IMG/VR virus record: IMGVR_UViG_3300034072_001301
Coordinates: 1-47,029 of that record
Direction: 5' to 3' (one strand)
DNA from: a virus
Length of the DNA stretch: 47,029 nt
In this document: one piece after another, positions 40,815 to 46,414 of the stretch
Numbering within the stretch: position 1 is the first letter of the stretch
Layout of the letters: each line of letters opens with the position of its first letter
Made by a program: the position numbers and the translations under genes
The notes under the pieces: generated by a model
Told to the model about the DNA's origin: nothing
Database searches by the model: none
Seen by the model: the letters and a program-made list of their open reading frames with translations, nothing else

Positions 40815-43796
40815 TTATTTACGGAAGTTTGCGTTCTTCAGCAGTTCAGCAAGCTGTTCCTTGAACACATCACTTTCGGTCATTGGGACACCACGACGTT
40901 CCAACTCAGAACGTAGCTGTTCACAATAACCAGAATATTTGGGATCTTCGGATGCTAGCTTGAGCTTGTTCTTCAGCATTTCATCGCTATAACCAGCAAA
41001 CACATCAGCGGCTGATTCATCAACACCAAACTTGTCAGCATACTCTCTAGCAGAACGATTCTTTTCCATCTTTTCTGCCCAATCAGCATCTGAACCGGTC
41101 TGCTCAGTATCATCAATCAGGTCTTGACCCTTGTCACCGCCTAGAACCTCTTCTTGTGATTCAAATGTGACATCACTCGAGATATCACGAATTCTGTCAG
41201 AGATCCAGTCTCCTAGAATGCTAGCAATCTGATTGTTAAAGTTCATTTCCTGCTCAGCTTTGTCATCTGTGCCAACTGGCATTTCAGCACCAAATGATTC
41301 TGGATCGGCGAATACCTTTTCAGCAAAAGCCTTGAAGTCTACGAGAACCTTCTCCAGATGATCTGGACCCATCAAACCTTCAGCAATGGCAGCTCTTGAC
41401 GCTTGTTCAAAAGCTTCATTACGAACCTTATCAAAATTCACTCTCAGAAGCTTGCGCTTTTCTGGCTCAACGCGATAGCCGCCAGCTTTGGAGAGAACAC
41501 CTTTGGTCATTGTCACCGTCTTGGTGTCTGGCAGTCGAGCATGAGGATTGTCAAAAATGACCTTGGCCATCTTTTCGTCAACCGCTAGAATTTCACCAGG
41601 ACCGTAAACCTTGTGAGTTACACGATCACCTACTTTGATCTCAGCATCAAACTCAGGATTGACTGGAGCAGCCTTTTTCTTTGGTGGTAGAGCAAAGCTA
41701 ACTTCTAACACGGCTTGCGGATCAAACTCCTCAAACCATTCAGCTAGTTCTGCTTCTTCACCAAATGATGCTAGTCCTGGAACTTTGTCCATGTCATCAA
41801 CGTGAATCTTACGAGCACCGCCATTCAAGAATTCAATCGACGCGATATCACCTTCAATCGAAATAATGGTTGCCGGACCCATATCAGTAGCTACGTGGTC
41901 ACCAGCTTCAAATCCATGATCTGAATAGTCATCATCGTTCTCAGCAAATTCCTGAATGGACTCACCTAGCGAATAGCCGCGTTCCTCAACGTATGCCTTG
42001 ACCTGAGGGTAAAGTTCTTCAGCCCATGTTTTGAACTGACCCTTTGTGACGTCCCAGCCTAGATGGTCCATGCCTGTTGTGAAATAACCATCAAGGTTAG
42101 ACATGATGTATTCTTTTTCAAGAGGCTCTTCCTTTTCCTCATCATGCTTGACGATAGGATAGAGATCTTCAATGAATTCTTGAACGTTGAACTGGCTTGA
42201 AAGAGTTTCTAGATCACTCTCATATTCAGCATCATGATCACCGTCATATGGATTTGGATTATAGTAGGATTCGTCTACTTCACCACTATTCAGGTCATCT
42301 TCAAGTGTCTGAATCAGCTTGCTAGCAATTGTCTTCTCAGCACCATCAAGTTTCTTGCCTTCAGCCATCTTATCAATAATGGTTCCAACATAGTTGAGAG
42401 TGGCCGAGTTGGCTAGGGCATGTTGACCCACATATAGGTCTAGATAAAAACGAGCCTTGGCGTTCATGTCAGCAAAGCCAGGAACATGCTCTGGGAACTC
42501 AGGCATCTCAAAATTGCCGGCGAGAATAGCACGAAGGCCATCAGCCAGTTCTTCAATACCTTTTTCCTGATCTTTGTCCAGTTGGGCCGGACGACCAGCA
42601 TCATCCAACTGACCAGAGGCAGCGTGACGTGCCTTTGTCCAAGCGGTAGCGTAGTTCAAGACCGCATCTTCTTCGTTTATCTGATAGGCAGTCTCCGTTA
42701 GATCCAGGAAATCAGTAGCATCTTCAAATACGAGACTTTCATTGAAAGCCACACTGGAACCAAAGCGAGTCCAGCTTTCTTCATCGTGTCCGTACTCGTC
42801 AAGGAGAGCTTCGACTAATGCGTCAGCAGCGGCATCCTCGAGAGTGAGAACGCTATGGAACATATTGTTCATATTGGTCATATTTTCACCCATTTGTAGC
42901 AGAGCGACTGGCATCAAAGACTCTGCCAGAGCATGGTTGGAGTCTATCATCAATATATCTTGAAGATGACTGATTTTATCACCTATTGACTCACTGAGGT
43001 TAACAGTGTTCAAAGGTAGTGATTCTTTTATTTTGTGGTAGCCTCGCGGCCTGCTCATTGTTGAGAAAACCCTTTTGAGCTCAACAATGCGATTTCTGAT
43101 AGGCATTCTCAGCGAAATTGCCTCTTCACCTAGAATATTTCTAGAATGGTGAATAAAGCAGTTTACTCGAGAAAGACTCAAGCTTTCCTGAGCCAGGGTA
43201 GTAAGTTTGCTTCCGATATCATCATATGGCCTTCCGCCTTGGTTGATATGCTGAGCAAATGCTCTACCTGCGCTCAAGTGGTTCTCAGGAAACTTGAAAC
43301 GTTCCCCTTCTTTGGTCTCAACAAAAAGACCCAAAATATTACGGCCACGAGCGCCGATTACTCCTTCAATAACAGGACGGCAATGGCGCACAATCAATTT
43401 GGTGTTACCAAACTTTTGATAGCTGGTTTTAGTGGATCCCCACATATTGGCTTCGTTCACGCTAGCTTGGTAAGCAAAGTCTTTGGGCTGTAGTTCGCGC
43501 CCATATTTTCGAACGTTGAACAAAACGTTATAGCGGGTAGTGATCTGACGAAGAGTATTGATCAGCTTGCTAATGGCTTTGACATCAGTGCTTTGACTGA
43601 GGTAAAGCTTTACCTCAGAATCACTACCAGCTTCAATCACGCTGACCATAATATTGTCCGGAGTAGCAAAAACTCTGCGAGCAGTTTTGGGCTCATAGGT
43701 TTTGTTGCCATCTTCGCCATACAGCGTAAGGGTCTTTCCTGATCCTTTCAGGACTTGAAACAACTCTTCGCTAAGGCTGTCAAACAACGAGCTCAT
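40815..43796 (-). CDS. Very large late protein, 993 aa
   Basis: The start MSSLFDSLSEELFQVLKGSG is chosen because GGAGG and a late motif precede it; an in-frame upstream start lies beyond the motif. Residues 1-260 form a mixed domain (FNVRKYGRELQPKDFAY, KLIVRHCRPVIEGVIGARGR). A helical region follows. Two KOW/Tudor-like barrels come later (FEAGDHVATDMGPATIISIE near 655; KVGDRVTHKVYGPGEILAVD near 735). The C-terminus is helical. The barrels resemble that of the 601-aa late protein. It lies next to terminase, where T4 keeps virion genes. SLSEE at the start fits a prohead-protease site. Confidence 0.6.
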   Translation of the reverse strand: MSSLFDSLSEELFQVLKGSGKTLTLYGEDGNKTYEPKTARRVFATPDNIMVSVIEAGSDSEVKLYLSQSTDVKAISKLINTLRQITTRYNVLFNVRKYGRELQPKDFAYQASVNEANMWGSTKTSYQKFGNTKLIVRHCRPVIEGVIGARGRNILGLFVETKEGERFKFPENHLSAGRAFAQHINQGGRPYDDIGSKLTTLAQESLSLSRVNCFIHHSRNILGEEAISLRMPIRNRIVELKRVFSTMSRPRGYHKIKESLPLNTVNLSESIGDKISHLQDILMIDSNHALAESLMPVALLQMGENMTNMNNMFHSVLTLEDAAADALVEALLDEYGHDEESWTRFGSSVAFNESLVFEDATDFLDLTETAYQINEEDAVLNYATAWTKARHAASGQLDDAGRPAQLDKDQEKGIEELADGLRAILAGNFEMPEFPEHVPGFADMNAKARFYLDLYVGQHALANSATLNYVGTIIDKMAEGKKLDGAEKTIASKLIQTLEDDLNSGEVDESYYNPNPYDGDHDAEYESDLETLSSQFNVQEFIEDLYPIVKHDEEKEEPLEKEYIMSNLDGYFTTGMDHLGWDVTKGQFKTWAEELYPQVKAYVEERGYSLGESIQEFAENDDDYSDHGFEAGDHVATDMGPATIISIEGDIASIEFLNGGARKIHVDDMDKVPGLASFGEEAELAEWFEEFDPQAVLEVSFALPPKKKAAPVNPEFDAEIKVGDRVTHKVYGPGEILAVDEKMAKVIFDNPHARLPDTKTVTMTKGVLSKAGGYRVEPEKRKLLRVNFDKVRNEAFEQASRAAIAEGLMGPDHLEKVLVDFKAFAEKVFADPESFGAEMPVGTDDKAEQEMNFNNQIASILGDWISDRIRDISSDVTFESQEEVLGGDKGQDLIDDTEQTGSDADWAEKMEKNRSAREYADKFGVDESAADVFAGYSDEMLKNKLKLASEDPKYSGYCEQLRSELERRGVPMTESDVFKEQLAELLKNANFRK

Positions 43797-43817
43797 GCGC
43801 AATCCTCCACTAAGTGT

Positions 43818-43827
43818 GATATTTAGC
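43818..43827 (-). promoter_or_regulatory. Late-type promoter element GCTAAATATC
   Basis: It lies 22 bases before the ATG at 43796, followed by TGGAGGATT, and decides the start of the 993-aa gene. Confidence 0.65.
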
Positions 43828-43837
43828 AAAAATATCA

Positions 43838-46414
43838 TTAGAAGCTCATAGGCATTGGCGCTGAGCTAGTGTCGTCCATATCACCTGTGCTTTTTAGGTT
43901 TTCTTCAATCTGCTCTTCCCAATCAGCGCAAATCTGTAGGAGACGAACTATCTGTAGGGTTCCCATGACCAAGTCATCATTTACCCCTATTTTGCCCTTG
44001 TAAGACCCGCCACCGCGCACAAAGTTCTTGAGCTCCGTGAGTAGCGCTCTGCTCTTCAGAGTCATTCTACGGGTCTCTACGAGCGTTTTAAAGCGTGCGC
44101 AGGCGGTCATCTTAGTTCTACTATTGGTGTTAAGACCTTTTCGACCTTTGCCGCCGCCGGTCTTGCGAGGTTCATGAGTGAAAATGCCTGGAAAATTCTC
44201 TTCACCGATAGTGTCAATGTAAACCAAAGCGGCTTCACCCAAGCTGTTGTTTTCAACAGTCCAGTAGATCTCAGGGTCACCATCCTGATCCGGGTGATTT
44301 ACTAGACTATGATGGATATACAAAAGAGCTTTTCTGAGGATCTCTACCTGGTCCTGGGTTATTGTCTTATTGTGTCTCCATTCAGCCACTTGAGTCAAAG
44401 TTGTCAGATCAAATACCTGAATCGCTGAGAAGTCAGAACCTGTTCCCATAGAAGGATCCAAAGTTGCCCCATATATATGATTGGGCTTGGGTTCTTCAAA
44501 CCAACGCATAGAGCCTATCTTGAAGATAGGTTCTTGTGGACTCAAATTGGCAAGTGTGATTGGGTTGATAAGGGTTTCGTCTTCAGAAACGAACTTACAT
44601 TCATATTCTCGTTGGAACTTTTCCTCACCAAGCTGTTGTCGCTGAGTTTGAGCCCATGCTTCGTCACGAGTTGGGTTCTTATCCCAGGTGATTTCCAATG
44701 GCTTATAACCATTACGACCTACGCCACCTGGAATGACTTCGCCATTGTCATCAATGTTGTTCTTGGCACCAAACCATATTTCAGCGAACTGATCTTCGTC
44801 ATTGTTTGGCGTACTGGTAATGATACAGCTACCACCGGTTGATAGTGTTGGAGCAATAGCTGACCAGAACTCAACTGCCTTGTTGGGCTGAACGAACGCG
44901 AATTCGTCTAGATAAAGCAGAGAGATCGAGAGACCACGACCAGCATCCTTGGATGTTGCGCGTGAAATGATCCTAGAGCCATTGTCAAAGGAGATTGTGC
45001 CCTTGTTGTATTCCACAACACCACTGCGAAGCCAGTTATACTGCTCGAGGTTCTCATACGCGAAACGAATACGATCCATGATCTCCAGCGCCGAAACAAA
45101 CTTATTAGCAGCAATCAGGATAGTGGTGTCTGGTTCAAACATAGCCTTCCAGAGAAGGAAACCAGCTGCGCAAGTGGTATTATGAGTTGGTACTAGAGTC
45201 TCACCGCATAGAAATAGATGATCATCATTATCGACCTGAAGACACCTGACTGGGACACTATCAGTTGGTTCAATAGATTTGATATAGATCCTAGTATTCT
45301 TTGGATGACTCTTACAAAGCTTCTGCCTCTCCAATTTTCTTTCCAATTTGAATATATCAAATGCGGATGTCGTAAATCTCAAAGACCAAGCAACTTTATG
45401 CCCAGTTTCCCTACTCGAAATCGTAGATTTGATTCCTAAGCTACTCAATAGAAGTCGAACCTGCCGAACCATAGTTTCATCACTTTGATAGAAATTACAG
45501 GTTCCATTCTTTTCCACTGATCCGTCAGTGTCCATTAATCCTCGTAGAAGCTCAAGGCGATTTTCTACTGATGTGAAGATATAGTAATCAGGAATATGCT
45601 TATTGGAAAGAACTCCCATTTGACGCAAAGCTATTTTAAAGCCACCAGCTATATTGAAGCTACCGGTGGTATCACTTCTCTTGTCCAGTCTGAATTTCGA
45701 GGATCTGAAGCCTGCTTTCTCTATCTCTCTTTGATAGGTCGGAAAGTCATCAATATGACAGGTGATTCCAGAAGAATTCCTACCACCGTCCCCTAGCCAT
45801 AGTCCCAAGAGATATGGATTCACAGGAAGTTGACTATCTTTAAACTTTATAGCTTCACAGTGTTTGATATGAATACTATGAGAGGTATCATTCCATTGCC
45901 TGAACTCTTCCAAAAGTTCAAGAGTAGTAATCGTCACAGTTTTTGGTTTTTTGGTTGGTATTACAACAGTCCAAAGATGCTCAGCATCAGCTATGACTGA
46001 ATCCCCGTGACTGAACTCTATAAGATAACAGGGACGATCATACATTGTTTCAGTTATGAACTGAATTCTGGTTGTTTCGCCGTCAGCCCCGTAGATCTCG
46101 TCGCCTATTTTAAGTTCACCCATTGTGGTGAATCCACTAGGCGTTAAGATAGGAGTATCTAAAGATAAGGCCTTGCCCATCTGTCGAGCAGTAAGTGCGA
46201 TGGTGTAACGATTCTTATGAAAGGAATCGATCATTTCTTCCTGATAAGGCCACAGCTTAAAGGGAACTCGACCTTGGGTCGGATGCTGGATCTTGACGTA
46301 GTTTTTACAGAAGTAAATGGGGTCAGACATACACTTTCTAAGTTCTTCAATCTGGTTTAGATTAAAGCGGTCCTTGCTGTACCCTTTTTTAATGATTTCA
46401 ATATCTTTTGCCAT
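43838..46414 (-). CDS. 17: Large terminase subunit gp17, intein-containing precursor
   Basis: The 858-residue precursor yields a 527-residue terminase after splicing. ATPase motifs: Walker A TARQMGK joined to TT after the intein, and Walker B LLYLDEFAFV. Nuclease motifs: ATLDPSMGTGSDFSAI, WTVENNSLGEAAL and GVNDDLVMGTL, giving three acidic residues. It translocates DNA into the prohead and cuts concatemers. Until the intein leaves, Walker A is split after its lysine, so packaging ATPase activity requires splicing. No Shine-Dalgarno sequence is clear before the ATG, and a hairpin sits just upstream. Confidence 0.95.
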   Translation of the reverse strand: MAKDIEIIKKGYSKDRFNLNQIEELRKCMSDPIYFCKNYVKIQHPTQGRVPFKLWPYQEEMIDSFHKNRYTIALTARQMGKALSLDTPILTPSGFTTMGELKIGDEIYGADGETTRIQFITETMYDRPCYLIEFSHGDSVIADAEHLWTVVIPTKKPKTVTITTLELLEEFRQWNDTSHSIHIKHCEAIKFKDSQLPVNPYLLGLWLGDGGRNSSGITCHIDDFPTYQREIEKAGFRSSKFRLDKRSDTTGSFNIAGGFKIALRQMGVLSNKHIPDYYIFTSVENRLELLRGLMDTDGSVEKNGTCNFYQSDETMVRQVRLLLSSLGIKSTISSRETGHKVAWSLRFTTSAFDIFKLERKLERQKLCKSHPKNTRIYIKSIEPTDSVPVRCLQVDNDDHLFLCGETLVPTHNTTCAAGFLLWKAMFEPDTTILIAANKFVSALEIMDRIRFAYENLEQYNWLRSGVVEYNKGTISFDNGSRIISRATSKDAGRGLSISLLYLDEFAFVQPNKAVEFWSAIAPTLSTGGSCIITSTPNNDEDQFAEIWFGAKNNIDDNGEVIPGGVGRNGYKPLEITWDKNPTRDEAWAQTQRQQLGEEKFQREYECKFVSEDETLINPITLANLSPQEPIFKIGSMRWFEEPKPNHIYGATLDPSMGTGSDFSAIQVFDLTTLTQVAEWRHNKTITQDQVEILRKALLYIHHSLVNHPDQDGDPEIYWTVENNSLGEAALVYIDTIGEENFPGIFTHEPRKTGGGKGRKGLNTNSRTKMTACARFKTLVETRRMTLKSRALLTELKNFVRGGGSYKGKIGVNDDLVMGTLQIVRLLQICADWEEQIEENLKSTGDMDDTSSAPMPMSF
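45179..46171 (-). other. Class 3 intein with LAGLIDADG homing endonuclease in gp17
   Basis: The 331-residue intein starts ALSLDTPILTPSGFTTMGEL right after Walker A Lys81 and ends VPTHN before Thr-Thr. Position one is Ala, not Cys/Ser. The class 3 triplet is complete: Trp148 in EHLWT (block B), Cys391 in VRCLQV (block F) and Thr410 in PTHN (block G). Two LAGLIDADG motifs are present: LLGLWLGDG and LLRGLMDTDG. Known class 3 inteins start splicing from the block F cysteine. The endonuclease would home into intein-free gp17 genes. Confidence 0.88.

What the first reader, a model, noticed from the sequence alone, without database searches (positions are those of the whole stretch)
45179..46171. 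Class 3 intein splits the Walker A of the packaging terminase
The intein begins with Ala, so standard N-terminal Cys/Ser chemistry is impossible, but the Trp (block B), Cys (block F) and Thr (block G) triplet of class 3 inteins is present, together with a two-motif LAGLIDADG endonuclease. It sits exactly between GK and TT of the P-loop, so ATPase activity depends on splicing. This could time DNA packaging to conditions that permit splicing. The +1 residue is Thr.
Basis: partly seen in the sequence, partly recalled or inferred. Interest (0 to 1): 0.75.

Follow-up and report, generated by a model that had tools for sequence, protein, structure and literature searches.

The report
Class 3 intein in jumbo-phage packaging terminase
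A self-splicing, mobile protein insert sits in the ATP-binding loop of a giant phage's DNA-packaging motor; it is intact and textbook-like, and the same arrangement is already present in many other phages, so it is a well-supported but ordinary new member of a known kind.

Summary
ORF 46414..43838 (-) encodes an 858-aa T4-type large terminase. Residues 82-412 (DNA 46171..45179) are a 331-aa intein between K81 and T413 of ARQMGK|TT; the exteins total 527 aa. All class 3 hallmarks are present: A82 first, H146 and W148 (block B), C391 (block F), T410-H411-N412 (block G), T413 at +1. Solved class 3 inteins are its closest sequence relatives in the PDB (MsmDnaBi1, E 2e-30), and the AlphaFold model fits MsmDnaBi1 at 1.4 A over 127 residues. 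The two-motif LAGLIDADG endonuclease is intact and under purifying selection (dN/dS about 0.04, rough). Related phages carry a perfectly empty site (527 aa, 92% identical). One contig shares the intein start at 96% DNA identity while its flank is only 78%, a homing signature. The kind is known: the intein of Klebsiella phages RaK2/K64-1 is at this site, mycobacteriophage TerL1-a inteins use the equivalent P-loop position, and most of the 90 inteins aligned sit in a P-loop. Timing of packaging is not supported: siblings do without the intein and selfish mobility explains the data. One testable hint: C129/C391 match the redox pair of MsmDnaBi1.

The parts
43838..46414 (-). terL precursor gene, 858 aa, T4-type large terminase interrupted by an intein
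   Evidence: ORF; Terminase_6N 4.7e-14; tblastn to RaK2 and other TerL proteins over 99% of length
46172..46414 (-). N-extein, residues 1-81, ending ...TARQMGK (first half of Walker A)
45179..46171 (-). class 3 intein, residues 82-412 (331 aa)
46133..46171 (-). block A, ALSLDTPILTPSG; first residue Ala, no N-terminal nucleophile
46028..46030 (-). Cys129 (intein residue 48), same position as the redox partner Cys48 of MsmDnaBi1
   Evidence: gapless alignment; 73 of 90 aligned inteins have Cys here; PMC6195587
45971..46006 (-). block B GDSVIADAEHLW with DxxH, His146 and the class 3 Trp148
45785..45814 (-). LAGLIDADG motif 1, YLLGLWLGDG, catalytic-type Asp209
   Evidence: 87 of 90 keep Asp
45590..45604 (-). 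endonuclease block D NKHIP, Lys272
   Evidence: 90 of 90 keep Lys
45521..45550 (-). LAGLIDADG motif 2, LLRGLMDTDG, catalytic-type Asp297
   Evidence: 87 of 90 keep Asp
45209..45256 (-). block F VPVRCLQVDNDDHLFL with nucleophile Cys391 (codon 45244..45242)
   Evidence: 90 of 90 keep Cys
45179..45199 (-). block G TLVPTHN with Thr410, His411, Asn412
43838..45178 (-). C-extein, residues 413-858 plus stop; begins with Thr413 (+1 nucleophile and Walker A Thr)

Best explanation
This is a complete, most likely splicing-competent class 3 intein with an intact LAGLIDADG homing endonuclease, a selfish mobile element fixed in the most conserved codons of terL. Inferred chemistry, from the known class 3 pathway: C391 attacks the K81-A82 peptide bond and forms a branched thioester; the acyl group passes to T413; N412 cyclises and releases the intein; an O-to-N shift leaves the 527-aa terminase with an intact ARQMGKTT P-loop. 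The endonuclease cuts intein-free terL alleles at the same GK|TT codons, and repair copies the intein in. Shown here: anatomy, homology, predicted fold, purifying selection, empty alleles, and a lateral-transfer signature between phage alleles. Inferred: the chemistry, DNA cleavage, and loss of ATPase activity in the precursor.
For: All class 3 signature residues at the right places. Closest PDB sequences are solved class 3 inteins, E 2e-30 and 5e-28, aligned to both intein ends. In 90 aligned inteins Cys 90, Thr 89, Asn 90, block-B His 90, Trp 89, +1 Thr/Ser 90; residue 1 is Ala in 67, Ser in one and never Cys. Model with pLDDT 91.5; HINT part superposes on MsmDnaBi1 (127 residues, 1.4 A, 46% id, Z 20.4) and the whole intein on PI-SceI (318 residues, 3.0 A, Z 27.7). 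Empty alleles 92% identical in TerL. Pairwise dN/dS of the endonuclease region about 0.04 against L010, with synonymous sites near saturation. L021: intein start 104/108 nt identical, adjacent N-extein 189/243, change exactly at the junction, p about 7e-8.
Against: No splicing or cleavage experiment exists for this protein. Synonymous divergence in the dN/dS comparison is near saturation, so the ratio is only rough. The L021 overlap with the intein is 108 nt because that contig ends there. Trp conservation in the relatives is partly selected by the search pattern.
Confidence: 0.93

Rival explanations
1. The intein is a regulatory switch: oxidation forms a C129-C391 disulfide that blocks splicing, so active terminase, and thus packaging, appears only under reducing conditions.
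For: C129 and C391 are at the positions of Cys48 and Cys118 of MsmDnaBi1, which form a reversible disulfide that blocks splicing (PMC6195587). Cys at position 48 is kept in 73 of 90 aligned inteins. The insertion splits Walker A.
Against: RaK2 and fENko-Kae01 have Met and one whole clade has Thr at position 48, so the pair is not required for the element. In MsmDnaBi1 Cys48 is needed for splicing itself (PMC6195587), so its conservation may be structural. Sibling phages have no intein. All five terminase inteins tested in PMC5050341 spliced readily.
Confidence: 0.07
2. The intein is a degenerate remnant that splices poorly or not at all, and terminase is supplied by another copy.
For: No experiment exists; the contig is a fragment, so a second terL elsewhere in the phage genome cannot be ruled out from this window.
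Against: Every catalytic residue of both activities is intact, exteins and intein are under purifying selection, and the 435,856-bp relative G001 shows a single terL match, the intein-bearing one.
Confidence: 0.03
3. It splices by a class 2 route, with the +1 residue attacking the N-junction directly.
For: Class 2 inteins also lack a nucleophile at position 1.
Against: Class 2 uses Cys at +1 (PMC7891396); here it is Thr, and the Trp-Cys-Thr triplet that separates class 3 from class 2 is present.
Confidence: 0.01

Closest known systems
Intein in the large terminase of Klebsiella jumbo phages RaK2 and K64-1 (HINT plus LAGLIDADG reported in PMC5259590), and of phage fENko-Kae01
   Same: Same protein, same GK|TT site, Ala1, WCT triplet, LAGLIDADG endonuclease; 43-45% identity over the precursor; in one supported clade with this intein
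   Different: Met instead of Cys at intein position 48; Klebsiella host. PMC5259590 gives no class or site in the passages read
Class 3 DnaB inteins of mycobacteria, MsmDnaBi1 (6bs8) and MchDnaB1 (6rix)
   Same: Sequence E 2e-30 and 5e-28, fold 1.4-2.0 A over 127-130 residues, same signature residues, Cys48 also present in MsmDnaBi1
   Different: Those are mini-inteins without endonuclease; MsmDnaBi1 lies in the DnaB P-loop with Ser at +1
Mycobacteriophage TerL1-a inteins, inserted between the P-loop Lys and Thr (PMC5050341)
   Same: Equivalent Walker A insertion point in a phage large terminase
   Different: Terminase_1 rather than T4-type terminase; the passages read do not state their mechanistic class
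Class 3 inteins in P-loops of uncultivated phages (many of L031-L109), Synechococcus phage B23, Escherichia phage Ec_Makalu_002, Alishewanella phage Slicko01
   Same: WCT triplet, LAGLIDADG, GK|T/S insertion in terminases
   Different: About 36-61% intein identity; several have Pro, Met, Lys or Gln at position 1

Membership tests
Class 3 intein | No Cys/Ser at intein position 1 | tested here: met
   Ala82
Class 3 intein | Trp in block B position 12 | tested here: met
   Trp148, two residues after His146, aligned to the Trp of 6bs8 and 6rix
Class 3 intein | Cys in block F position 4, the first nucleophile | tested here: met
   Cys391, aligned to VRC of 6bs8 and 6rix, kept in 90 of 90
Class 3 intein | Thr in block G position 5, then His-Asn | tested here: met
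   T410 H411 N412
Class 3 intein | +1 Cys, Ser or Thr | tested here: met
   Thr413
Class 3 intein | HINT fold like solved class 3 inteins | tested here: met
   AlphaFold model, Z 20.4 to 6bs8 over 127 residues; a prediction, not a solved structure
Class 3 intein | Block F branched intermediate and Cys-dependent splicing | not testable with these tools
   needs expression and mutagenesis
LAGLIDADG homing endonuclease (intein-borne, two motifs) | Two LAGLIDADG motifs with their acidic residues | tested here: met
   Asp209 and Asp297; Pfam LAGLIDADG_3 1.3e-12, Hom_end 3.5e-05; fold match to PI-SceI over 318 residues
LAGLIDADG homing endonuclease (intein-borne, two motifs) | Traces of mobility into intein-free alleles | tested here: met
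   Empty alleles; identity jump at the junction in L021. DNA cleavage itself not tested
TerL P-loop insertion (TerL1-a-like site) | Insertion between Walker A Lys and Thr | tested here: met
   ARQMGK|TT, exact against seven intein-free terminases
T4-type large terminase | Terminase_6 ATPase plus RNase H-like nuclease | tested here: met
   Terminase_6N 4.7e-14; nuclease domain Terminase_6C only 0.067, under its cut-off, but full-length alignment to RaK2 and Phosso TerL
Redox-switched class 3 intein (MsmDnaBi1 type) | Cys48 and block F Cys pair | tested here: met
   C129 and C391
Redox-switched class 3 intein (MsmDnaBi1 type) | Reversible disulfide that blocks splicing | not testable with these tools
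   needs biochemistry

The most novel reading that the evidence does not exclude
The intein is a redox gate on DNA packaging: under oxidative conditions C129 and C391 form a disulfide, the terminase stays as an inactive precursor with a broken P-loop, and packaging resumes on reduction.
Probability: 0.06. Interest if true: 0.6.

Novelty: new member of a known kind. Interest (0 to 1): 0.22.

Why it matters
It is a clean, intact class 3 intein in a jumbo-phage group for which nearly identical intein-free relatives exist, so splicing, homing and any fitness or timing effect could be compared in matched alleles. It also shows that the Cys48/block F Cys pair, called non-conserved at Cys48 in the MsmDnaBi1 study, is common among phage class 3 relatives (73 of 90). 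In itself it adds one member to a large known family.

Tried and rejected
Rfam and tRNA scans of the window found nothing, so no known RNA intron is involved. Class 2 chemistry was considered and rejected (+1 Thr, WCT present). A chance reading of the motifs was rejected by homology over the whole intein. I looked for a co-conversion tract beside the intein in L021 and saw none on the N side, where identity stays about 78% up to the junction. The L022 contig matches the intein start perfectly (75/75) but its flank is also close (92%), so it says little about transfer. Composition gives no help: intein GC 0.40 against 0.41 and 0.46 in the exteins. No atomic coordinates of the model were available in the Python box, so the distance from C391 to the K81-A82 bond was not measured. 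Tori and Perler 2011 (PMC3133030), which defines class 3 inteins more fully, is not held.

Full report
What was checked. The ORF on the minus strand from 46414 to 43838 encodes 858 residues. It matches the T4-type terminase ATPase family (Terminase_6N, 4.7e-14), with LAGLIDADG_3 (1.3e-12) and Hom_end (3.5e-05) in the inserted part.

Class. The defining features of class 3 inteins as stated in PMC7891396 are: no nucleophile at position 1, Cys at block F position 4, Trp in block B position 12, Thr in block G position 5, and +1 Cys, Ser or Thr. All are met. The strongest sequence matches in the whole PDB are the solved class 3 inteins MsmDnaBi1 (6bs8, 2e-30) and MchDnaB1 (6rix, 5e-28), aligned from the first to the last intein residue with the endonuclease as an insertion. 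An AlphaFold model from 35 aligned sequences (pLDDT 91.5) superposes on 6bs8 at 1.4 A over 127 residues with 46% identity, and as a whole on PI-SceI at 3.0 A over 318 residues.

Relatives. The same kind of intein at the same site is in the terminases of Klebsiella jumbo phages RaK2, K64-1 and fENko-Kae01, Synechococcus phage B23, Escherichia phage Ec_Makalu_002 and Alishewanella phage Slicko01. Of 90 inteins aligned (the window, the best viral-contig loci and named phages), 80 lie between GK and T/S and 71 of these have the [RK][QK]xGK form seen in phage terminases; Cys is kept in 90, Thr in 89, Asn in 90, Trp in 89. One of the two search patterns contained the Trp, so its conservation is partly selected; the block F Cys and block G Thr were not in the patterns. 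In a quick tree the window intein sits with L010 (support 100), then with RaK2, fENko-Kae01 and L031-L033 (99).

Mobility. Contigs and phages related to the window (L011, L012, L013, L014, L016, L019 and Sinorhizobium phage Phosso, L004) have terminases of 524-532 residues with an uninterrupted ARQMGKTT; L011 and L012 have exactly 527 residues and 92% identity to the spliced window protein. Between the window and L010 the endonuclease region has dN 0.08 and dN/dS about 0.04, though synonymous sites are close to saturation. In contig L021 the first 108 nt of the intein are 96% identical to the window while the adjoining 243 nt of N-extein are 78% identical, and the change falls exactly on the junction (binomial p about 7e-8). 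Together these are what a homing element leaves behind.

Mechanism. Inferred from the class 3 pathway: Cys391 attacks the Lys81-Ala82 bond, the acyl group moves to Thr413, Asn412 cyclises, and an O-N shift restores ARQMGKTT. Thr413 would be both splicing nucleophile and Walker A residue, as Ser+1 is in MsmDnaBi1 (PMC6195587). That the precursor lacks ATPase activity is an inference from the split Walker A, supported by the precedent of the P-loop RadA intein cited in PMC6195587.

Regulation. Against it: intein-free siblings with nearly the same terminase; all five mycobacteriophage terminase inteins tested spliced readily (PMC5050341); and the selfish explanation covers all observations. One point in favour came out here: MsmDnaBi1 is blocked by a reversible disulfide between Cys48 and its block F Cys118 (PMC6195587), and this intein has both cysteines at the same positions, C129 and C391. 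Position 48 is Cys in 73 of 90 aligned inteins, Thr in 11, and Met in RaK2 and fENko-Kae01. Since Cys48 is also needed for splicing in MsmDnaBi1, conservation alone does not show regulation.

Known or new. Inteins in phage terminases, in the P-loop between Lys and Thr, are described (PMC5050341); the HINT plus LAGLIDADG insert in RaK2 and K64-1 terminase is described (PMC5259590); 1701 class 3 inteins were counted in 2020, 82.5% of them with LAGLIDADG motifs (PMC7891396). This is a new member of a known kind.

Context. The window is a 47-kb virus record; a 4.8-kb stretch is colinear at 81.5% with a 435,856-bp contig. The nearest cultured relatives by extein identity are Sinorhizobium phage Phosso (469 kb) and Agrobacterium phage Atu_ph07 (490 kb), so this is probably a fragment of a jumbo phage, perhaps of a rhizobial host (inference).

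Noticed in passing
Salicola phage SCTP-2 MF360958.1: gp534 429356-429748, gp267 256428-257321, gp224 215993-218077 (L119, L122, L124, L130, L131): The large terminase is in three distant genes. Sequence ends suggest two trans-splicing split inteins (P-loop ARQLGK|CVDY... / ...GILSHN|TAVA, and Walker B SLLY|CLDG... / ...GGNVSQ|CDEF) plus a cis intein (PTIS|CLAPG...GILGSN|TGGK) in gp224. All three are annotated only as terminase large subunit.
   Followed up: partly
L005 4977-5348 and 5360-7168 (Agrobacterium phage Atu_ph07): A near relative of the window has terL broken into two genes at the same GK|TT site, with halves that look like a split class 1 intein (GRQLGK|SVHKSTDI... / ...NGILSHN|TTVAAA). 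A sequencing frameshift is not excluded.
   Followed up: partly
L120 1398-3605 (Serratia phage 3M), L121 964-3210 (Vibrio phage Kuja): Ackermannviridae terminases carry a class 1-like mini-intein without visible LAGLIDADG (C1 ... SHN|TT) at the same P-loop site, so at least two different intein types use this site.
   Followed up: partly
L045, L047, L051, L062-L064, L066-L068, L092: One clade of TerL class 3 inteins has Met, Lys or Gln at position 1 and Thr at position 48 instead of Ala1/Cys48, a possible coupled change.
   Followed up: no
window 40815-43838 (-): A 1007-aa protein downstream of terL matches a PHROG of virion structural proteins only over its first 300 residues.
   Followed up: no
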